Of a stretch of 64,000 nt of DNA, positions 6,227 through 14,046 are shown in pieces. Source of the stretch: Psychroflexus torquis ATCC 700755 (lineage in GTDB: Bacteria > Bacteroidota > Bacteroidia > Flavobacteriales > Flavobacteriaceae); contig NC_018721.1 in the NCBI RefSeq assembly GCF_000153485.2, positions 1,984,001 through 2,048,000 of the forward strand. The letters are read 5' to 3'. The notes under the pieces are model-generated. The model ran no database searches. It was not told the DNA's origin and saw only the letters and a list, made by a program, of their open reading frames with translations. The translations under genes were made by a program, and so were the position numbers. Every line of letters starts with the position of its first letter. Within the stretch, counting starts at the first letter, position 1.

Positions 6227-6653
6227 CTTTTCTTTTAGGAAGGCAAAAATACAGATTTATTAGGCTTCCGCTAAAGGCCTTAACAAGATGTTTTGTCTTC
6301 ACAATACAATGCCTTTGAGTTTGTCTTTTAAAAAGTAGCGACGAATTATTTTAAAAAACTCATCAATTAGTTTATCAGGTCCCATCTTTCCTAGATTTAT
6401 GACTAAGGGAAGCCGCTATTATAAAAGCTGGAGTTGTAAACACACCTACTAATGTTTTAATTTCCACAAGCTCGTAAAACCCTAAAATAATGGATATAAA
6501 TAAAAGTATATTTATTGTAGGGCTTTACGAGCTTTATTGATGTTCATGTGTTAGTTTTTAGTAACGGTTTATGGGGTTTTGATTAACAGAAGTAGATTAA
6601 AGTTGGGATCAAGGCTTATTGTTAGTTCTTCTATAAAATTGCTTTTAACAATA
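6227..6653. other. Intergenic region with hairpin/direct repeat
   Basis: This ~430-bp stretch has no gene. Its main content is the hairpin/direct repeat annotated at 6468-6534. The rest is AT-rich and unstructured. Confidence 0.5.
6468..6534. repeat. Hairpin whose left part is a 47-bp direct repeat flanking the defence island
   Basis: Bases 6468-6484 (AAGCTCGTAAAACCCTA) pair with 6518-6534 (TAGGGCTTTACGAGCTT) with one mismatch, giving a 17-bp stem and a 33-base loop. Bases 6468-6514 match 11239-11285 at 40 of 47 positions in the same orientation. These are the outermost common sequences around the restriction/NUDIX/S24 gene group. Confidence 0.7.
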
Positions 6654-6902
6654 TTATTTTGTGAATCTAATTTGCAAATTCAATTGATTACTTTCTTTAT
6701 AAATCTCTCCAAATCCATGTCTTGAAGAACTCGCAGTATCGAGTTTTGTATTATTTAGCAAATAGTCCTCAAATTCATTTCTATTATAAATGTGATAACA
6801 CAGAACATCTCCGTTTCCTTTAACAATTAAATATCCCCCCGTTGCCTCTTATTGACCTGTCCAAACTTTTGATGGCATCATTCCAGTGCGACATCGGTTA
6901 AA
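6654..6902 (-). pseudogene. Remnant of HpaII-like type II restriction endonuclease (C-terminus)
   Basis: The minus strand reads RCRTGMMPSKVWTGQ, then a TAA stop, then EATGGYLIVKGNGDVL, CYHIYNRNEFEDYL, SSSRHGFGEIYKE and a final LNLQIRFTK before the natural stop. The continuous sense on both sides of the in-frame stop shows one gene damaged by a nonsense change. From memory of the family, the GGYxxVKxxGDxxxYHxYNRxxFxxYL and C-terminal NLQIRF pattern fits HpaII-type nucleases; this is not checked. No N-terminal part or partner methyltransferase for it is seen. It directly follows the 79-residue ORF. Confidence 0.55.
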
Positions 6903-6920
6903 TGGGAGGATGTAATCCAA

Positions 6921-7160
6921 CTAAATCTCTGCGTTAGCTTCTATAAAACTTTCTAATTCACCTTCAGTTAAAAATGAATATTTTGGTTCTAAGCCAAATT
7001 CGAAGAATTTTACTAATCCTAATACGTCTGTGAAAAGCCTGAAGTGATTTCCTTCATAATTATAAACGTAAAAAAGTTTATCAGTATTTTTTAAATTGAT
7101 TGTTTCAATGGTGCGACATGCAGTGATGTAATCTACTAAGCAATTATTAATTGTCTTCAT
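6921..7160 (-). CDS. Small hypothetical protein, 79 aa
   Basis: This 79-codon ORF starts at ATG after an A-rich leader (TATAGAAAAAATG). The protein is mixed alpha/beta in character, with FYVYNYEGNHFRLFTD in the middle and an acidic C-terminus (TEGELESFIEANAEI). No family is recognised. It lies between the HpaII-like remnant and the S24 peptidase gene on the same strand, so it may belong to the defence island. Confidence 0.5.
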   Translation of the reverse strand: MKTINNCLVDYITACRTIETINLKNTDKLFYVYNYEGNHFRLFTDVLGLVKFFEFGLEPKYSFLTEGELESFIEANAEI

Positions 7161-7305
7161 TTTTTCTATAGTTTAAAAGTTTTTTTTCAAATAGCTATTG
7201 TCATCAAAAAAGTAAGAGCATTTGTAACCAAGTCTTTATTGCTTAATTTTTGATTCTATTCTCTACTACCGATTTTAGTAGGTTAGAAAGTTGACATTCA
7301 TTTTT

Positions 7306-7938
7306 TTAACTTTTTAAAATCTCAATAAACTCCCCGACAACTCTCATTCCTGATGCACTTTCTTCATTGAGAATAATATCTTCATAAGAATCATCAAGCG
7401 AATTTGGCCTTAAAACAATAGACTTATGTCTAAAACTTTCCCCCGAAAACACTTTTTCACTTGAATATGTTTTGATAGTAAAAGCGGAATTGAAATCTTG
7501 ATCTTGAATATCCATATTTTCTACCAAAACGATTTTCCCGTTTCTACTGCCCACTGGATTTGCTTTAAATAAGCAGATTGAACCATTCGGGATTACTCTA
7601 TTCATTGATTCACCAACTATTTTACAAGCAAAATAATCGTTATTTGAATTACTTTTTTCTGAGCCTTCTATTAAGGAAAAATCTTTTTCTAATTGCATTT
7701 CACTAAACGTTCCTGCTGCGGCATAAAAATTATAAAATGGGATAGGGTTTAGTAACTCTTTTTCAACAGGTGTCGTTCTTACTAGTGGAACAGTTTTTCC
7801 ATTATTTTCTGAAGAGGAATCTCTTATCTTTCTATTCTCTTGTAAATAGGTATAGATGGGAGCTATAACAGGATTTTCTAAATTGAACCGAATTTTTACA
7901 ACTGGAATTTGTCTACCTTTGTTATTCTGGATTGCCAT
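7306..7938 (-). CDS. S24 (LexA/UmuD-like) peptidase-domain protein, likely C-terminal piece of a PLD-helicase
   Basis: Residues ~65-210 form an S24 self-cleaving peptidase domain. FYAAAG at ~71-76 gives the Ala-Gly cleavage-site type. GESMNRVIPNG carries nucleophile Ser111, GSRNGKIVLVEN follows, and FTIKTY carries the general-base Lys156. The N-terminal ~45 residues (GRQIPVVKIRFNLENPV) resemble the end of the DUF3427 region found ahead of an S24 domain in large PLD/DEAD-box helicases. There is no helix-turn-helix, so it is not a plain LexA repressor. An in-frame stop lies directly before the ATG. The gene has the same orientation as the helicase N-terminus at 10476-10685, 2.5 kb upstream, and both may derive from one gene broken by the R-M insertion. 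Confidence 0.7.
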   Translation of the reverse strand: MAIQNNKGRQIPVVKIRFNLENPVIAPIYTYLQENRKIRDSSSENNGKTVPLVRTTPVEKELLNPIPFYNFYAAAGTFSEMQLEKDFSLIEGSEKSNSNNDYFACKIVGESMNRVIPNGSICLFKANPVGSRNGKIVLVENMDIQDQDFNSAFTIKTYSSEKVFSGESFRHKSIVLRPNSLDDSYEDIILNEESASGMRVVGEFIEILKS

Positions 7939-7949
7939 TTACTCAGCAA

Positions 7950-8110
7950 CACGAGGGAAAAACATGGATCAACACTAGTGTAATCGGAATGCGTACAAAT
8001 GATTATAAACAAAGCGTTTGGCATGGTGTTTTTGATGTGGAAACAAACCCCTTTTAGTTAAAGTCGATCCAATATGATGCTTAAGCAGTAAATACAGCAA
8101 TGTAACAAAA
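7950..8110 (+). pseudogene. Decayed plus-strand coding fragment, unknown family
   Basis: One plus-strand frame reads coherently as HEGKTWINTSVIGMRTNDYK and QSVWHGVFDVETNPF, then continues across several stops (LKSIQYDA, AVNTAM). This looks like the remnant of a gene unrelated to the flanking S24 and methyltransferase genes. I cannot name it. From 8110 to 8300 nothing coding is visible. Confidence 0.35.
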
Positions 8111-8302
8111 CAACTTCCGGAAGAATATTCCAAGACATTAGATACTTGACTTTGGAATAATTGTGCAATTTTGCCTGAGGTGGAGACTAAGGAGGAGGAT
8201 TAGGAGATTGGTGAATCGTTGATTTTAATACGCTGATTAACCCGTCTAAAAAAAAATTGCAGATTTAACTTTTAAACAAAGTGACCACTTTATTGGTGTA
8301 AA

Positions 8303-8332
8303 AAAAGTTGTATTACAAGATTTACAACTTTT
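8303..8332. promoter_or_regulatory. Perfect inverted repeat, candidate operator upstream of the methyltransferase
   Basis: AAAAGTTGTA (8303-8312) and TACAACTTTT (8323-8332) form perfect 10-bp arms with a 10-base spacer. The site ends 22 bases upstream of the -33 element of the methyltransferase promoter. The methyltransferase has its own MerR-like DNA-binding domain, so autoregulation through this dyad is a reasonable inference. Confidence 0.55.
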
Positions 8333-8354
8333 GCGACAAAAAATTACTATTCAG

Positions 8355-8384
8355 TTTGTCGGAAACAAAATTTAACTATATTTG
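8355..8384 (+). promoter_or_regulatory. Bacteroidota-type promoter for the methyltransferase
   Basis: TTTG at 8355-8358 and TATATTTG at 8377-8384 are separated by 18 bases, close to the known Bacteroidota primary-sigma pattern (TTTG, ~19-21 bases, TAnnTTTG). Transcription would begin near 8391, giving a very short leader before the ATG at 8397 or the more likely ATG at 8409. Confidence 0.6.
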
Positions 8385-8396
8385 TAACCATGTATA

Positions 8397-9647
8397 ATGT
8401 TGTGTAATATGGTTATTAAAGATTATTATTCTATTTCTGAAGTTGCTGATATTCTAGGAAAAAGCACTGAAACCCTAAGAAGATGGGATCGAGATGGTAA
8501 GTTGTCAGCGGTTCGAGAACCTATGAGTAACTATCGTGTTTATTGCAAGGAACAGTTACAATTATTTCCTGAATTCCAAAATGCCGAAAATATAAATCAT
8601 GTAGTGGGGAATTTTGTGAAACCAAATAACGATTATTCTGTTCTTGAACTATTTGCTGGAGCTGGGGGTCTTGCAATCGGATTAGAACAGTCGGGAATAA
8701 AGTGTACAGCACTAAATGAAATTGATAAATGGGCTTGTCAAACTCTTCGAACTAATAGACCTAGTTGGAATATCCTTGAAGGAGATATTAAGAATTTTGA
8801 TTTTAGACAATATGAGAATAAAGTTGATATTGTAACGGGGGGATTTCCATGTCAAGCATTTAGTTACGCGGGTAAAAAACTAGGTTTAAAAGATGCTCGT
8901 GGAACATTGTTTTATGAGTTTGCTAGAGTAATTCAAGAAGTAAAACCAGCAATTTGTATTGGAGAGAATGTACGTGGATTATTGAACCATGAGAACGGTG
9001 AAACTTTGAAGGGTATGATTTCTATTTTAGATGAAATCGGATATAACGTAGTTGCTCCAGTTCAAATTCTAAAGGCAATAAACTATAATGTTCCCCAAAA
9101 AAGAGAAAGGTTGATTTTAGTGGGGGTACGAAAAGACATTGATTTAGAATATGTTTATCCTTCACCATATGAAAAAGTATACAACCTTAGTGATGCCTTG
9201 AAAAAAGGAGAGCTTTACGATTCAAAAGTTCCAATTTCTAAAGGAACACAATACCCAGAAAACAAAAAGAAAGTGTTGGACTTAATTCCACCAAAAGGCT
9301 ATTGGAGAGATTTACCTATAGATCTTCAGAAAGAATACATGCAAAAGAGTTTCTATCTTGGAGGTGGAAAAACAGGCATGGCAAGAAGAATTGGTTGGGA
9401 TGAGCCGTGTTTAACATTAACGTGTAGCCCAGCTCAGAAGCAAACAGAGAGATGCCATCCTGAAGAAACGCGGCCATTTACAGTAAGGGAATATGCTAGA
9501 ATTCAAACTTTTCCAGATAAATGGAGCTTTGAAGGATCCGTTTCACAACAATACAAACAAATAGGTAATGCTGTCCCTATTAACCTTGCAAAAGAGATAG
9601 GTTATTCTTTAGTCAAATTTTTAAATGAATTTTATACAGAAAAATAA
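8397..9647 (+). CDS. MerR-domain DNA (cytosine-5-)-methyltransferase, type II R-M
   Basis: Residues ~10-50 form a MerR-type helix-turn-helix (YYSISEVADILGKSTETLRR, then a wing ending NYRVY). A complete C5-cytosine methyltransferase follows: motif I LELFAGAGGL, motif IV GGFPCQAFS with catalytic Cys152, motif VI GENVRGLL, motif VIII QKRERLILVG, motif IX REYARIQTFPDKW and motif X QIGNAVP. The enzyme should protect host DNA from the partner nuclease, and the fused HTH probably also sets expression. The start may be ATG 8397 or ATG 8409; the latter leaves a more usual leader. The 3' end lies 6 bp from the 3' end of the convergent nuclease gene. Confidence 0.93.
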   Translation: MLCNMVIKDYYSISEVADILGKSTETLRRWDRDGKLSAVREPMSNYRVYCKEQLQLFPEFQNAENINHVVGNFVKPNNDYSVLELFAGAGGLAIGLEQSGIKCTALNEIDKWACQTLRTNRPSWNILEGDIKNFDFRQYENKVDIVTGGFPCQAFSYAGKKLGLKDARGTLFYEFARVIQEVKPAICIGENVRGLLNHENGETLKGMISILDEIGYNVVAPVQILKAINYNVPQKRERLILVGVRKDIDLEYVYPSPYEKVYNLSDALKKGELYDSKVPISKGTQYPENKKKVLDLIPPKGYWRDLPIDLQKEYMQKSFYLGGGKTGMARRIGWDEPCLTLTCSPAQKQTERCHPEETRPFTVREYARIQTFPDKWSFEGSVSQQYKQIGNAVPINLAKEIGYSLVKFLNEFYTEK

Positions 9648-9653
9648 AACAGT

Positions 9654-10361
9654 CTATTTGTATTTTTCTTCAATTTCTTTGGTTAATTTATTTATTGTAG
9701 TTTCAACCACCTTGCTGGCATCAACTTCTAGAGCTACTTCTCCTATAGCATCTATTAGTTCAAAGTAGAAATCTTCTTTTCCTGTTAATCGGTACCAAAA
9801 ATCTTGACCTATGTATACTGGATAATTTTGCCCTATCTTTCGATAATGGGAGCTTAATTCAGATACTTCACCATAAACCACACCAACAATCATATCATTT
9901 ATTCCAACATTTAAATTATTGGTTCTAGCTAGATTTCTTACACCATCGAAATGATTAACGATGGTTGTTACATCATCGCGATTTATCGTGTTTGGTCCAG
10001 CTTTTAATTGACAGTATTTTTTTCTTTCATCCACCGCATCAATGAACTCTATATCGATTCCTTGAGTTGTGGAGCCAAGACCTTGAAATAAAGATGTTAT
10101 TAAGCTCTGGACTTTCATTCCAAAAGAAGTTGTAATAGAAGAGCCCAATACCCTTGGAAGAACCAAAGCTTTAGCAATACTTTTAGGGTCATCATTTCCT
10201 GTCAAAAAATTAGCCAAATATTTAAATAAAAAGGGATTTACATTATAGTTTGAAAGGCTACTAGCTCTTTTACAAGCTCCGTCGATATGGCTTTGTGCAA
10301 TTTCAGCTCTGAAAAATTGTTTAGCATTTTCAATAATCTGTTCCCTATGTTCATTATCCAT
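9654..10361 (-). CDS. Type II restriction endonuclease (PmeII-like family)
   Basis: I start it at the ATG preceded by a run of A (ATAAAAAAAATGGAT), which gives 235 residues. It is convergent with the methyltransferase and ends 6 bp from it, the classical R-M layout. The likely PD-(D/E)xK core is GIDIEF (Asp103, Glu105) followed by YCQLKAGPNTINRDD, with Gln118-x-Lys120 in the catalytic strand. The LKAGPxTIN block and the C-terminal GQDFWYRLTGKEDFYFELID block recall PmeII-family nucleases from memory. The recognition sequence is not deducible. There is no room for a terminator between the two genes. Confidence 0.75.
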   Translation of the reverse strand: MDNEHREQIIENAKQFFRAEIAQSHIDGACKRASSLSNYNVNPFLFKYLANFLTGNDDPKSIAKALVLPRVLGSSITTSFGMKVQSLITSLFQGLGSTTQGIDIEFIDAVDERKKYCQLKAGPNTINRDDVTTIVNHFDGVRNLARTNNLNVGINDMIVGVVYGEVSELSSHYRKIGQNYPVYIGQDFWYRLTGKEDFYFELIDAIGEVALEVDASKVVETTINKLTKEIEEKYK

Positions 10362-10475
10362 TTTTTTTATCAGTTTTATCAAAGTTAGTAAAAGTTATTG
10401 TATTGGATTTATTTTTTACAATGATCGCCAACATATTAGTGTATGGTTATTTATTATTAGTATTAAACTAGTCAC

Positions 10476-10685
10476 CTATTGTCTAAACTTTGTTGTTACA
10501 AATGCAACAGAGATATAAAATTGATTGCAGTTTTCTAGTTCATGAAGTATTGATGAAAGAACTTTTTTTGGTGGATTTTTTTGATTGACGAGTAGTTCAG
10601 GTTGGTAGTCTAGATCCGATGAAATGGTTTTATCTACATAACCCGTTTGTAAACTTCTATTGAAAATTTCAGTAAGCTTATCCAT
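10476..10685 (-). pseudogene. PLD-type DEAD-box helicase (DUF3427 family), N-terminal 69 codons only
   Basis: The fragment begins MDKLTEIFNRSLQTGYVDK and runs to KKVLSSILHELENCNQFYIS followed by VAFVTTK. This is the start of a phospholipase D-like nuclease domain as found at the head of large DUF3427 helicases. After VTTK the sequence departs from the family and hits a stop within three codons. Full-length proteins are ~1000 residues. The ATG overlaps the stop of the NUDIX gene upstream by 8 bases, so the two were co-translated. The restriction nuclease begins ~115 bases downstream of the break. Confidence 0.7.
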
Positions 10686-11073
10686 TCACTAGTAATTTGT
10701 CTACTATGGGAATATCCGCTGCTGCCCAATCAAGTTTTTTAAGTTCTTTTAGCGTTAGCCACTCTTTAGCTATATGTTCATGAAGTGTAAGTTCTTTTGT
10801 TTCAACTTCGCAAATAAAACTATGCATAGTCAATTCAAAATCTGGATATTCATGAACAACTGTAAGAAACAATGCTTTGATATGTGTTGAAATACTTAAT
10901 TCTTCTAGCAATTCACGTTCCAAAGCTTCCTTTTTTGTTTCACCATGTTCCACTTTCCCACCGGGAAATTCAAATTTCTCAGATATATAGGCCAGTTTGT
11001 TTTTTGGCCTTTGAACGCACAAAATTTCATTCTGAAAAAAGATTACTCCAGCAACTACTTCAATCTTTTGCAT
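10678..11073 (-). CDS. NUDIX hydrolase, (deoxy)nucleoside triphosphate pyrophosphohydrolase (MutT-like)
   Basis: I start it at MQKIEVVAGV because AAGGTAGTA precedes that ATG; the longer frame would use TTG. The protein is 131 residues. The Nudix box is GGKVEHGETKKEALERELLE EL at ~38-59, with the RE..EEL metal-binding helix intact, and the FEFPGGK entry is of the MutT/CTP-pyrophosphohydrolase type. It hydrolyses nucleoside triphosphates with a modified base or a damage/alarmone-like substrate; the exact one is not visible. It overlaps the helicase start by 8 bases, and the NUDIX-PLD-helicase pairing suggests a defence role rather than simple housekeeping. Confidence 0.85.
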   Translation of the reverse strand: MQKIEVVAGVIFFQNEILCVQRPKNKLAYISEKFEFPGGKVEHGETKKEALERELLEELSISTHIKALFLTVVHEYPDFELTMHSFICEVETKELTLHEHIAKEWLTLKELKKLDWAAADIPIVDKLLVNG

Positions 11074-11106
11074 TACTACCTTTTGTTTTATTCTATTTGC
11101 TGACAA

Positions 11107-11404
11107 TTAGTTTTATAAACACAATAATACAAGTTAATCACAAACTCTTTTAAAATAAGTGAGTTTAATTTTTTATCTATCGAGAACACTCTCTAAAAGC
11201 TGAAGATATAAAAGAGTGCTGACTATTTAAGTTTACAAAAGCTCCTAAAACCATAGAATAATGGGTGTAAATAAAAGAATGTTTAAAATACAGAACCCTG
11301 TTGTGTTTTCTTTTAGTGATAGCTTAAAAGACTAGTCTCATAATTTGATAAGACAGAGGCTGTTTTTCTTTAGCCGTTTATTCTAGGTTCCTACTATTCA
11401 ATAA
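11107..11404. other. Intergenic region holding the right copy of the island-flanking repeat
   Basis: There is no gene here. Bases 11239-11285 match the hairpin arm/loop at 6468-6514 at 40 of 47 positions, but the pairing right arm is absent. A possible weak hairpin near 11285-11320 is not convincing. Confidence 0.5.
11239..11285. repeat. 47-bp direct repeat, right copy (see 6468-6514)
   Basis: It starts AAGCTCCTAAAACCATAGAA and continues TAATGGGTGTAAATAAAAGA; seven mismatches separate it from the left copy, same orientation. Together the two bracket the HpaII-like remnant, S24, R-M and NUDIX genes (about 4.8 kb). Confidence 0.7.
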
Positions 11405-13813
11405 TCAGTTATTCAAGCATTGAAAGCTCCCAATTGGACTACCATCTGGGATTTTGGGTGATGGAATTACCTTGAACTTTTCCGGTTCGTCCATAAACTG
11501 ATCGATACGGTACGTCATTTCCATTTCAACTACTGAGTTGGATTCCCTAAATTCGTTTTTCAATCCCTTCAAGGTTTTGTTTGCAAAAGCCTTTACTTGT
11601 GGAATACTCCCTGAATTCGCTGAAAGATTCATCAGGTGCTTTAATACATTAAAATTGATGGTGTTTTGGACTTCACTCAAATAAGCAGAGTCGTGTTGCT
11701 TTCCAAACGTGTTTTTTACCAATTCCTCCAAGACCTGTTCTAGTCCTAAATTTGACTTCTCTAAAGATTTCTGCTGGATGAGTCGGTTGGCACGCTCTGG
11801 ATGCAGTAATAAGCCTAAGCTCATATCGCTTGCTGTAGCGGAGGCGCCCAAAGCATCAAAACCAACCCCTGTTTTACTTTTAAAGGATTCGCGGCTTCTG
11901 GCATAACCAAATGCACGAGGTGGAAACAGGTCCAAAATTCGCTCTGGAATAGCCAAAGCTTCTGCATCAAGAGTATTTAAAGCCGCTTCAAGAGCCTTGA
12001 TCTGATCGGATTTTGGAATCCTCTCAACTGGTGTTAAGCTACTGCCTTTAACTGCATAGTTGTAATCCAAACCACCAATAAGTTTAATGGTGGCCTCTGT
12101 TTGATAGCGATGGAAAAAATATAAAGAGGCGAACACATCCTCTAAAACTGAATATGGTTCACCCGTCTTGATATTGTCTATAGAAAAGTTTGAAATGGCT
12201 GTTTTGCGTAGCTCTAAAAGACGACTTAACTCCTTATAGACATCTTTTCCATTATCCCACAAATGAGCATAGGCATGCGCTCCACCTTGAGCTCGCGCAT
12301 CAGCATCGCTTATAAACCGCAAACCATCGGCTTCGGCTTGTTTTAAAATAGCGTTTAAGTATTGTTTTTCAGTTTTATTGGTACCGCTATCCCCATAACT
12401 ATAGGCAACGGTGACTTTATCCCATTCGCCAATATTGGTATCGTAAGCTTCAGAGAAGTCGATTTGGTTATCTTTTAATTTCAGTTTTGGATGTGGATAA
12501 TCCATAACGCTCGTCCTACCCTGTGCACTGGCAGAAAAGTTGTGTGCAAACCCCAAGGTATGGCCAACTTCGTGTGCCGCCAACTGACGGATACGCGCCA
12601 AAGCCATCTTTAACATAGGTTGGTAATTATCATCAGAAATCTCAAAAGGTCGATTCATCAAGGCCTGTGCGATCATATAATCCTGACGAATCCTAAGGCT
12701 ACCTAAACTTACATGACCTTTTAGAATTTCACCTGTGCGCGGATCAACGACACTAGCACCATAGCTCCAACCCCTTGTGGAACGGTGTACCCATTGAATT
12801 ACGTTATAGCGAAGGTCCATAGGATCTGCATCGGCTGGAAGCATCTTGACCTGAAAAGCATTTTTATAACCAATCTCTTCGAAGGCCTGATCCCACCATC
12901 TGGCACCATCTAACAAAGCAGATCTTACAGGCTCTGGTGTTCCAGGATCCAAATAATAAATAATGGGTTCTTTAGCTTCGCTTATGTCTGCATTGGGATT
13001 CTTTTTTTCCAAGCGATGGCGAATGCTGTATCGCTTAACCAACGGCTCAAAAATCGGCGTTGCATAGTCCTGATAGGACATAAAAATAGAACCGCTTCTG
13101 GGGTCAAATTCACGTTTTTTATAGCCGTCTTTAGGTAACTGGACAAAACTGTGGTGTTGGGTTACCGTTAAGTTAGAGGCATCCGGAGCAACTGAGCGAA
13201 TATTTCTCCCCTCAGGATCGCCTGAAAAGGTAAGCAAAGCTTCAAATTCTGTATTTTTAGGAAAAGCTTTGGTGCGAAGCATGGCTAGTGCACTTTTATT
13301 TTTATCCAATTTGTAAGTCCCCTGCTTTTGTTGTTTCAATCGTCTAGAGACACCGTGAGCATCTTCCATTAGAAAAGGAGTGAGGTCGATAAGGAAACTC
13401 TTATCACTTTCGTCTTCAATTTTGAAACCATACAAAACAGATTTGGCAAAAGCTTGTTCAACACTTCGGCGCTCTAAACTATTATCCGTTATAGCTTTAT
13501 AATCCTGATTGGGCTGAACCAATAGCAGCTTGTTTCCAGCACGTTGAAACTTTACAATGGCTGTTCCTCCAAGCTGTCCACGATCCAAACCGATGTCGTT
13601 GGAGCCCAAACCAGTCGTAAGTGAATGCACGTAGAGGAAGTCTTGGTCAAGCTGTTCAACCTTCATATAAATTTTATCTTCCTTTTCTGAATACCAAAAA
13701 TCGAAAAACCCTTCATATTTTGTTAGTTGCTCCTTTTTTTCTAAAATTTTAAAGGTTTGCGCAGAAGAAACTGAAGCCATTAACAAAATAGTAACGTAAA
13801 TAAGAGTTTTCAT
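11405..13813 (-). CDS. Secreted zinc-dependent metalloprotease (DUF5117/DUF4953 type)
   Basis: This 802-residue protein has a signal peptide (MKTLIYVTILLMASVSSAQ) and a metzincin-type zinc site HEVGHTLGFAH at 414-424 (His414, Glu415, His418, His424), followed by a Met-turn candidate SVMDYPHPKL. The long N-terminal region carries the family's SLTTGLGSNDIGLDRG block (~64-79) and YYLDPGTPEPVRSALLDGAR before the catalytic domain. Family length is ~800 residues, so it is complete. It likely degrades protein in the periplasm or outside the cell. It stands alone in a minus-strand transcription unit, and the divergent gene at 14047 shares a ~230-bp upstream region. Confidence 0.88.
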   Translation of the reverse strand: MKTLIYVTILLMASVSSAQTFKILEKKEQLTKYEGFFDFWYSEKEDKIYMKVEQLDQDFLYVHSLTTGLGSNDIGLDRGQLGGTAIVKFQRAGNKLLLVQPNQDYKAITDNSLERRSVEQAFAKSVLYGFKIEDESDKSFLIDLTPFLMEDAHGVSRRLKQQKQGTYKLDKNKSALAMLRTKAFPKNTEFEALLTFSGDPEGRNIRSVAPDASNLTVTQHHSFVQLPKDGYKKREFDPRSGSIFMSYQDYATPIFEPLVKRYSIRHRLEKKNPNADISEAKEPIIYYLDPGTPEPVRSALLDGARWWDQAFEEIGYKNAFQVKMLPADADPMDLRYNVIQWVHRSTRGWSYGASVVDPRTGEILKGHVSLGSLRIRQDYMIAQALMNRPFEISDDNYQPMLKMALARIRQLAAHEVGHTLGFAHNFSASAQGRTSVMDYPHPKLKLKDNQIDFSEAYDTNIGEWDKVTVAYSYGDSGTNKTEKQYLNAILKQAEADGLRFISDADARAQGGAHAYAHLWDNGKDVYKELSRLLELRKTAISNFSIDNIKTGEPYSVLEDVFASLYFFHRYQTEATIKLIGGLDYNYAVKGSSLTPVERIPKSDQIKALEAALNTLDAEALAIPERILDLFPPRAFGYARSRESFKSKTGVGFDALGASATASDMSLGLLLHPERANRLIQQKSLEKSNLGLEQVLEELVKNTFGKQHDSAYLSEVQNTINFNVLKHLMNLSANSGSIPQVKAFANKTLKGLKNEFRESNSVVEMEMTYRIDQFMDEPEKFKVIPSPKIPDGSPIGSFQCLNN

Positions 13814-14046
13814 AGATAGATATTTATAAAATCAAAGCTTTAAAGATAGTAAAACTTGTTAATCCCTTTCAAAAAGCTTGATGTTTGCAAATTAAAAGTT
13901 CCAAAACCAACAAAAAGTAATCCTTTTAAGAATTTTTAATATTGAATTCCTATTTCCGTATAAAATATACTTTCCTAATTTAATTAATGAATTTTTAATA
14001 AAAGTAAAGACTTATTTGAAAATCTTTAAACATAGTTTTGCAGGTC

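What the first reader, a model, noticed from the sequence alone, without database searches (positions are those of the whole stretch)
6654..11073. Restriction-modification pair sits in place of the body of a PLD-helicase-S24 gene
Seen: a PLD-type helicase N-terminus (10476-10685) breaks off abruptly after VTTK. The gene for an S24 peptidase domain, preceded by DUF3427-end-like sequence, lies in the same orientation at 7306-7938. Between the two are a complete methyltransferase and a convergent nuclease. Known: NUDIX hydrolases, PLD-DEAD helicases with DUF3427 and an S24 C-terminus occur together in bacteria. Inference: a NUDIX + PLD-helicase-S24 defence gene was replaced in its middle by an R-M module, so one defence system displaced another. 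A still-expressed S24 domain and NUDIX enzyme are left behind.
Basis: partly seen in the sequence, partly recalled or inferred. Interest (0 to 1): 0.75.

Follow-up and report, generated by a model that had tools for sequence, protein, structure and literature searches.

The report
Restriction-modification pair replaced methyl-DNA-cutting enzyme gene
A pair of genes that marks and cuts DNA sits where the middle of another defence gene, one predicted to destroy such marked DNA, used to be; similar swaps show up in a few other bacteria, which hints that the two defences are incompatible.

Summary
Codons 1-65 (window 10491-10685) and the last ~210 codons (7306-7938) belong to one gene: a SauUSI-type Type IV (m5C-directed) restriction enzyme with a C-terminal S24 domain, downstream of a NUDIX gene. 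Of 77 relatives fetched, 66 align over >95% of it (61 in one open frame), collinear with both window fragments. In the window ~2.5 kb of other DNA, including a complete convergent C5-methyltransferase/endonuclease cassette (8377-~10370), replaces ~860 codons (PLD active site, ATPase, most of the SRA/DUF3427 domain). A remnant of a second C5 system, HpaII, lies beside it (6654-6848). New: the swap recurs. Winogradskyella has an HpaII pair where three related genera have the intact operon beside polA; two other genomes have C5-methyltransferase cassettes next to a leftover tail. Four of 7 broken loci (window included) carry a C5 methyltransferase in the cassette; none was found near the 66. Best reading: an m5C-producing system and an m5C-cutting enzyme cannot coexist, and replacement settles it. 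The swap is shown; the cause is inferred from small numbers. The general conflict is known; settlement by in-place replacement I did not find in print.

The parts
6559..11190 (.). acquired island (limits approximate), absent from congener G022, which has an intact 263-aa gene at this place
   Evidence: blastn of window against L160: 4363-6558 is 92% identical to L160 4540-6733; homology then stops
6455..6514 (+). left copy of a 60-nt direct repeat flanking the island, derived from the 263-aa gene
   Evidence: 82% identical to 11226-11285; 49 of 60 matches against at most 37 in 200 Markov-resampled pairs
11226..11285 (+). right copy of the direct repeat; 11191-11302 is 75% identical to part of the same G022 gene
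6654..6848 (-). remnant: C-terminus of an HpaII-type restriction endonuclease
   Evidence: RE_HpaII profile positions 294-359, E=1.7e-25; 47.5% identical to the HpaII-type enzyme of L065, residues 306-385
6921..7160 (-). 79-aa ORF downstream of the S24 tail; a relative (38%) lies right after the intact gene in Flavicella sediminum
   Evidence: tblastn to L084 6567-6791
7306..7938 (-). leftover C-terminus: end of DUF3427/SRA plus whole S24 domain, open frame of 210 codons
   Evidence: none of the 54 covered highly conserved columns is changed
7939..8376 (.). filler DNA of unknown origin between tail and cassette
   Evidence: no match in phages (blastn), own genome (none better than E=0.14) or held loci; a 37-aa frame of it has no match in plasmids
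8377..10370 (.). R-M cassette as delimited by DNA homology to relatives
   Evidence: in 14 of 15 related loci blastn homology begins between 8348 and 8377 (8 of them exactly at 8377), the 15th being cut by its contig end; it ends at 10370 at the furthest
8397..9647 (+). C5 cytosine methyltransferase with N-terminal MerR-type HTH
   Evidence: PF00145 6.7e-85, PF00376 4e-9; the only PF00145 match in its genome
9654..10382 (-). type II restriction endonuclease (RE_EcoO109I Pfam; 'PmeII family' in some source names of close relatives), convergent to the MTase; start at 10361 likely, since most listed relatives have 235 aa
   Evidence: PF14511 1.9e-34; the 119 best other proteins listed are 79-91% identical; same convergent pair in other Flavobacteriaceae
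10371..10490 (.). junction DNA between cassette and the N-terminal fragment
   Evidence: 10371-10485 matches no held locus at E<=0.01
10491..10685 (-). leftover N-terminus of the SauUSI-type gene, codons 1-65 (frame continues 4 codons to a stop at 10476)
10678..11106 (-). intact NUDIX hydrolase gene, neighbour of the displaced enzyme (PADLOC candidate PDC-S07, E=6.8e-46)

Best explanation
A NUDIX gene and a SauUSI-type Type IV restriction enzyme with a fused C-terminal S24 domain once formed an operon here. A type II R-M cassette with a C5 cytosine methyltransferase was substituted for codons 66 to about 930 of the enzyme, leaving a dead N-terminal stub and an open reading frame for the S24 domain. 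Shown by sequence: the substitution and its approximate limits. Inferred: the intact enzyme cut DNA carrying m5C in a short context, as SauUSI does, so a cell that gained a C5 methyltransferase while the enzyme was active would have cut its own chromosome. Cells in which the incoming R-M locus itself replaced the enzyme gene solve that conflict in one step, which would explain why such replacements recur. My confidence is about 0.95 in the replacement and about 0.5 in conflict as its cause; the figure below is for the whole statement.
Against: Ten of 41 strictly intact genomes do carry a C5 MTase, so coexistence occurs. Of these, two are HaeIII/NgoPII-type by REase family (recalled site GGCC, which would rarely fit SauUSI's site; one is Tamlana L066, an intact polA-site comparator), but two have MvaI/BcnI-type REases, whose recalled CCWGG/CCSGG sites could fit; most others were not typed to a site. 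The specificity of the window's own MTase is unknown; if it were RGGNCCY (recalled for EcoO109I) few sites would fit SauUSI's motif. Three of 7 broken loci (L078, L081, L085) are plain deletions and two of those genomes show no C5 MTase (L078's is a 1.7-Mb draft). Numbers are small, comparisons were chosen after seeing data and are not corrected for phylogeny or multiple tests; among loci titled Flavobacteriaceae/Flavobacteriales the figures are 5 of 23 against 86 of 198, p=0.07. Flanks are uneven (47 of 66 loci hold 5 kb or more downstream, the shortest 1 base). The base rate of C5 among all R-M cassettes was not measured.
Confidence: 0.6

Rival explanations
1. Ordinary turnover at a defence locus: the Type IV gene was already dead or dispensable, and R-M cassettes landed there by chance or by recombination between defence loci. 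The C5 type of the methyltransferase is coincidence.
For: Plain internal deletions without any R-M exist (L078, L081, L085) and 5 of the 66 near-full-length loci have broken frames. The window island holds two R-M systems, one of them a remnant. C5 MTases are common: 87 of 199 Flavobacteriaceae genomes.
Against: All four insert-type scars carry a C5 MTase.
Confidence: 0.32
2. The S24 domain was kept on purpose: after loss of the nuclease it works as a stand-alone LexA/UmuD-like autoprotease or decoy, and the replacement is a domain-release event.
For: Open 210-codon frame with none of 54 covered conserved columns changed. Four of 7 broken loci keep a complete S24 domain starting near the DUF3427/S24 border (window, L065, L069, L078). 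Invariant AAAG (73-76), S111 and K156 look like a LexA-type cleavage site and Ser-Lys dyad (assignment recalled). A 154-aa S24-only protein, 92% identical, exists (P0002).
Against: The other three broken loci keep only partial S24 domains. Changes at conserved columns number 2, 7 and 4 in the leftover tails of L065, L069 and L078, against a mean of 1 and a maximum of 5 in the 66. The window's start codon lies at the junction. No expression evidence.
Confidence: 0.12
3. Assembly artefact or chimera.
For: None found.
Against: The genome is a single 4.32-Mb contig, 99.98% complete, and independent genomes show the same kind of replacement.
Confidence: 0.02

Closest known systems
SauUSI (Staphylococcus aureus), PLD nuclease / SF2 ATPase / SRA (DUF3427) Type IV enzyme (PMC7913695 abstract and passages; PMC3874153 passages)
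   Same: A full-length relative of the displaced gene (L012) matches over residues 2-969, with four of six 5mC-pocket residues kept.
   Different: The relatives carry an extra C-terminal S24 domain (1009-1138 in L012) and a NUDIX neighbour. In the window only codons 1-65 and the end remain.
PcaRCI R-M against PcaRCII methylation-dependent enzyme in Pectobacterium (PMC8989522; abstract and passages read)
   Same: An R-M system thought to be acquired later meets a resident enzyme that would attack its mark; the conflict must be resolved.
   Different: There the MTase silences the promoter and both genes survive; here the R-M locus physically takes the place of the Type IV gene.
McrBC killing of cells that gain a DNA methyltransferase (PMC2614495; passages read)
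   Same: The principle that a Type IV enzyme blocks establishment of a methyltransferase gene.
   Different: An experiment with a different enzyme family and an m4C methyltransferase (PvuII); no genomic scar. [quoted passage not shown]
EcoO109I/PmeII-type and HpaII-type type II R-M systems
   Same: The window cassette and the L065 cassette look like ordinary members by sequence.
   Different: Their position, inside or in place of a Type IV gene, is the unusual part.
Insertion with long target duplication (Nobusato et al. 2000; title seen in reference lists only)
   Same: The whole island is flanked by a diverged duplication of part of the interrupted gene.
   Different: The duplication flanks the entire island, not the R-M cassette inside the Type IV gene; I noticed no repeat at the cassette's own ends.

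Membership tests
SauUSI-type Type IV restriction enzyme (window gene) | PLD nuclease, SF2 ATPase and SRA/DUF3427 domains in one chain | tested here: not met
   Only codons 1-65 and the end of DUF3427 remain: a relic, not a working member
SauUSI-type Type IV restriction enzyme (intact relatives) | the same three domains in one chain | tested here: met
   PLDc_2, ResIII/Helicase_C, DUF3427 in L012 and L066, the two full-length relatives scanned; L012 to 7clg_A E=1.6e-225
SauUSI-type Type IV restriction enzyme (intact relatives) | 5mC-binding pocket residues | tested here: inconclusive
   4 of 6 identical, 1 conservative, 1 different in L012
SauUSI-type Type IV restriction enzyme (intact relatives) | cleaves S-m5C-NGS DNA with ATP | not testable with these tools
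   needs biochemistry
Type II R-M system (window cassette) | C5 methyltransferase with PCQ and ENV motifs (motifs recalled) plus an endonuclease gene | tested here: met
   PF00145 6.7e-85 and PF14511 1.9e-34; motifs visible in the translation; convergent pair conserved
EcoO109I specificity (RGGNCCY, recalled) | recognition sequence | not testable with these tools
   phmmer found no restriction enzyme in the PDB; specificity must not be transferred
S24 (LexA/UmuD-like) autoprotease (leftover ORF) | S24 domain with Ser-Lys dyad and Ala-Gly site | tested here: met
   PF00717; S111, K156, A75-G76 invariant in 17 sequences; assignment of these residues is recalled
S24 autoprotease (leftover ORF) | self-cleavage stimulated by RecA | not testable with these tools
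   bench only
HpaII R-M system (6654-6848) | complete endonuclease and methyltransferase | tested here: not met
   only profile positions 294-359 of 359 remain; the cassette's MTase is the only PF00145 match in the genome

The most novel reading that the evidence does not exclude
m5C-directed Type IV genes of the SauUSI-S24 family are repeatedly and selectively overwritten in place by C5-methyltransferase R-M systems. The incoming system survives only if it destroys the resident enzyme that would attack its mark, so the scar locus is both its landing site and its licence. Such scars would be a genomic record of epigenetic warfare.
Probability: 0.4. Interest if true: 0.72.

Novelty: new variant of a known kind. 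Interest (0 to 1): 0.6.

Why it matters
Type IV enzymes are thought to guard against incoming methyltransferases, but in the passages I read the settlements were cell death, mutual exclusion (StyLTI and Mrr, as cited in PMC8989522) or promoter silencing. Here the winner sits inside the loser's gene: one case with stub and tail (window), one with intact comparators at the same chromosomal site (Winogradskyella), and two more with leftover tails. That turns a selection argument into something countable: scars in one gene family should hold C5 and not N6 or N4 methyltransferases. It also flags an enzyme form, SauUSI with an S24 domain and a NUDIX neighbour, that I did not find described.

Tried and rejected
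Filler 7939-8376: a short frame looked protein-like, but neither Pfam (two frames), plasmids by tblastn of 37 aa, phages by blastn, the own genome nor the held loci matched it; origin left open.

Looking for more broken loci by the N-terminus: 395 genomes of the phylum gave 9 hits; 8 had open frames of 975-1160 aa and only the window was short. No extra scars came from this.

S24 hits with 722-739-aa frames were set aside as a different protein, since only the S24 part aligned; not examined further.

EcoO109I recognition sequence for the window enzyme: rejected as untransferable.

Papers: none that I saw describes an R-M system replacing the body of a Type IV gene (search listings, capped lists; one search held no paper; passages), nor an S24-fused SauUSI (listings). 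Two likely relevant papers cited there (Furuta 2010, Ishikawa 2010) are not held, so absence from print is not established.

Rows dropped: 5 of 77 loci end at a contig edge (L026, L048, L071, L074, L083). For the C5 count I gave only 50 of 77 loci: all 6 broken ones and 44 of the 66 near-full-length ones, picked by hand without a fixed rule before the result was seen; L036 and L080, both frame-broken, were among the 22 near-full-length loci left out. The Flavobacteriaceae subset (23) was picked by record title and includes two titled only Flavobacteriales. Frame breaks in draft genomes may be sequencing errors.

Full report
What is there. On the minus strand of the window a NUDIX gene (10678-11106) runs into a 69-codon frame (10476-10685), and a 210-codon S24 frame (7306-7938) lies 2.5 kb further on in the same orientation. 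Between them are a C5 cytosine methyltransferase (8397-9647, +) and a convergent endonuclease (9654-10382, -). The 69-codon frame matches positions 1-63 of PADLOC's Type IV enzyme model (E=1.7e-16) and keeps all 19 residues invariant in 22 relatives up to T65, where homology stops. The S24 frame begins at the end of DUF3427; alignments run up to about five codons further upstream across a TAA, so that junction is known only to within a few codons.

What it was. The genome collection gave 77 loci encoding relatives of the S24 tail. Sixty-six cover more than 95% of a full-length protein of about 1,120-1,156 aa; in all 66 a NUDIX gene ends within 21 bases of its start, and in 61 the tail lies in one open frame of at least 1,111 codons. 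Five more loci end at a contig edge and six are broken. A full-length example (L012) matches SauUSI, PDB 7clg, over residues 2-969 (E=1.6e-225) and has an S24 domain behind that. SauUSI is a PLD nuclease/SF2 ATPase/SRA enzyme that cuts S-m5C-NGS DNA (PMC7913695 and PMC3874153, passages). Four of its six 5mC-pocket residues are kept in L012, one is a conservative change and one differs. The displaced gene was therefore most likely an m5C-directed Type IV enzyme. In the window about 860 codons, with the PLD active site, the ATPase and most of the recognition domain, are gone; the fragments align to residues 1-65 and 930-1144 of L009.

What took its place. In 14 of 15 other Flavobacteriaceae loci with a related R-M pair, DNA homology to the window begins between 8348 and 8377, and it reaches 10370 at the furthest (the 15th is cut by its contig end), so the cassette is about 2 kb and complete. 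The 438 bp between cassette and tail and the 120 bp between cassette and stub gave no match in what I searched. The endonuclease belongs to the RE_EcoO109I/PmeII group and was found in 16 of 329 Flavobacteriaceae genomes, the window's included. Its site is not known.

The island. In the congener G022 (neighbour gene 95% identical, the best of the 60 genomes searched) an intact 263-aa gene lies where the window has the island. Window 6229-6558 matches this gene and its end (86%), and 11191-11302 is a second, 75% identical copy of part of it; together they give a 60-nt direct repeat at 82% identity (49 of 60 matches, at most 37 in 200 Markov-resampled pairs). The island therefore seems to have come in as a unit, with target duplication. 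A further piece, 6654-6848, is the C-terminus of an HpaII endonuclease (E=1.7e-25), the remnant of a second C5 R-M system, so the history has more than two steps.

Counts. A C5 methyltransferase was found (tblastn with four queries) in the fetched locus in 3 of 7 broken loci, window included, and 0 of the other 66 (p=5.6e-4); counting L082, whose methyltransferase lies outside the 12-kb locus, it is 4 of 7. Flank lengths differ (47 of 66 hold 5 kb or more downstream, the shortest 1 base), and a locus with an insertion is bound to show its insertion, so the fairer statement is that 4 of 4 insert-type scars carry a C5 methyltransferase. Three of the 44 turned out to have broken frames (L014, L043, L076), two of them with C5 methyltransferases. 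Redrawn, it is 7 of 10 non-intact against 10 of 41 strictly intact (p=0.010), and 10 of 41 against 86 of 198 control Flavobacteriaceae without the window (p=0.024). Before this redrawing the comparison with the control was 12 of 44, p=0.06. The control differs in taxonomy and includes two genomes that hold the intact gene (G028, G239). For loci titled Flavobacteriaceae or Flavobacteriales the figures are 5 of 23 and p=0.07. These tests are exploratory and uncorrected for phylogeny or multiplicity.

Fit of the marks. M.HpaII makes C-m5C-GG (PMC5487053, passage), which is an S-m5C-NGS site whenever G or C follows. HpaII-type pairs or remnants turned up in three genomes with this gene family, and the enzyme gene is dead in all three: the window, L065, and Brumimicrobium L043 (HpaII pair elsewhere in the genome, enzyme frame broken). 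NgoFVII (GCSGC, recalled) would also fit. Among intact genomes two C5 systems are HaeIII/NgoPII type (GGCC, recalled), which rarely fit; two have MvaI/BcnI-type endonucleases, which could fit and speak against a strict rule.

Mechanism. Shown: the enzyme body was replaced, the frames of the cassette are open, and the same kind of replacement is seen elsewhere. Inferred: the resident enzyme would have cut a chromosome newly marked with m5C, as McrBC does after arrival of a suitable methyltransferase (PMC2614495, passages), so only lineages that had lost the enzyme could keep the cassette, and replacement of the gene by the cassette does both at once. In Pectobacterium a comparable conflict is settled by promoter methylation instead (PMC8989522, abstract and passages). 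Chance turnover at a defence locus remains a serious rival.

The leftovers. The S24 tail has none of its 54 covered conserved columns changed, so either the event is young or the piece is still useful; near-full-length relatives average one change, and the leftover tails of L065, L069 and L078 have 2, 7 and 4. Four of 7 broken loci keep a whole S24 domain, three do not. No expression data exist here.

Verdict. The parts are all of known kinds; their arrangement, and its recurrence, is a new variant of the known conflict between R-M systems and Type IV enzymes.

Noticed in passing
window 6654-6848: C-terminal remnant of an HpaII-type restriction endonuclease downstream of the S24 tail, a second C5 R-M system in the same island.
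   Followed up: yes
window 6455-6514 and 11226-11285: Diverged 60-nt direct repeat flanking the island, both copies derived from a 263-aa gene that is intact in congener G022 (L160 6438-7229).
   Followed up: partly
window 11405-13813 and 13889-13957: The metalloprotease (DUF4953/DUF5117) lies between the island and a further piece of the interrupted 263-aa gene, while in G022 it lies elsewhere (L160 11645-14053): a local rearrangement.
   Followed up: partly
window 6921-7160; L084 6567-6791: Small ORF after the S24 gene, also present after the intact gene in Flavicella sediminum (38% identity): possible third gene of the operon.
   Followed up: no
L009-L085: A SauUSI-type Type IV enzyme fused to an S24 domain, next to a NUDIX hydrolase (PADLOC PDC-S07), occurs mainly in Bacteroidota records; I found no description of the S24 fusion in print.
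   Followed up: partly
L081 1200-1603, L085 5086-6192, L078 5667-6582: Independent internal deletions of the same gene without R-M insertion, one of them (L085) leaving a 369-aa in-frame fusion.
   Followed up: partly
L100-L103, L105, L106, L116, L118-L132: A separate set of ~720-740-aa frames with a C-terminal S24 domain in Flavobacteriales; not identified.
   Followed up: no
L109 7393-10299: A relative in G200 aligns to the helicase and DUF3427 part only (8-958 of L066), with no S24 part in the alignment: perhaps the form without S24.
   Followed up: no
P0002: 154-aa S24-only protein, 92% identical to the window tail, on a 1.5-kb metagenome contig: perhaps another scar in a near relative.
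   Followed up: no
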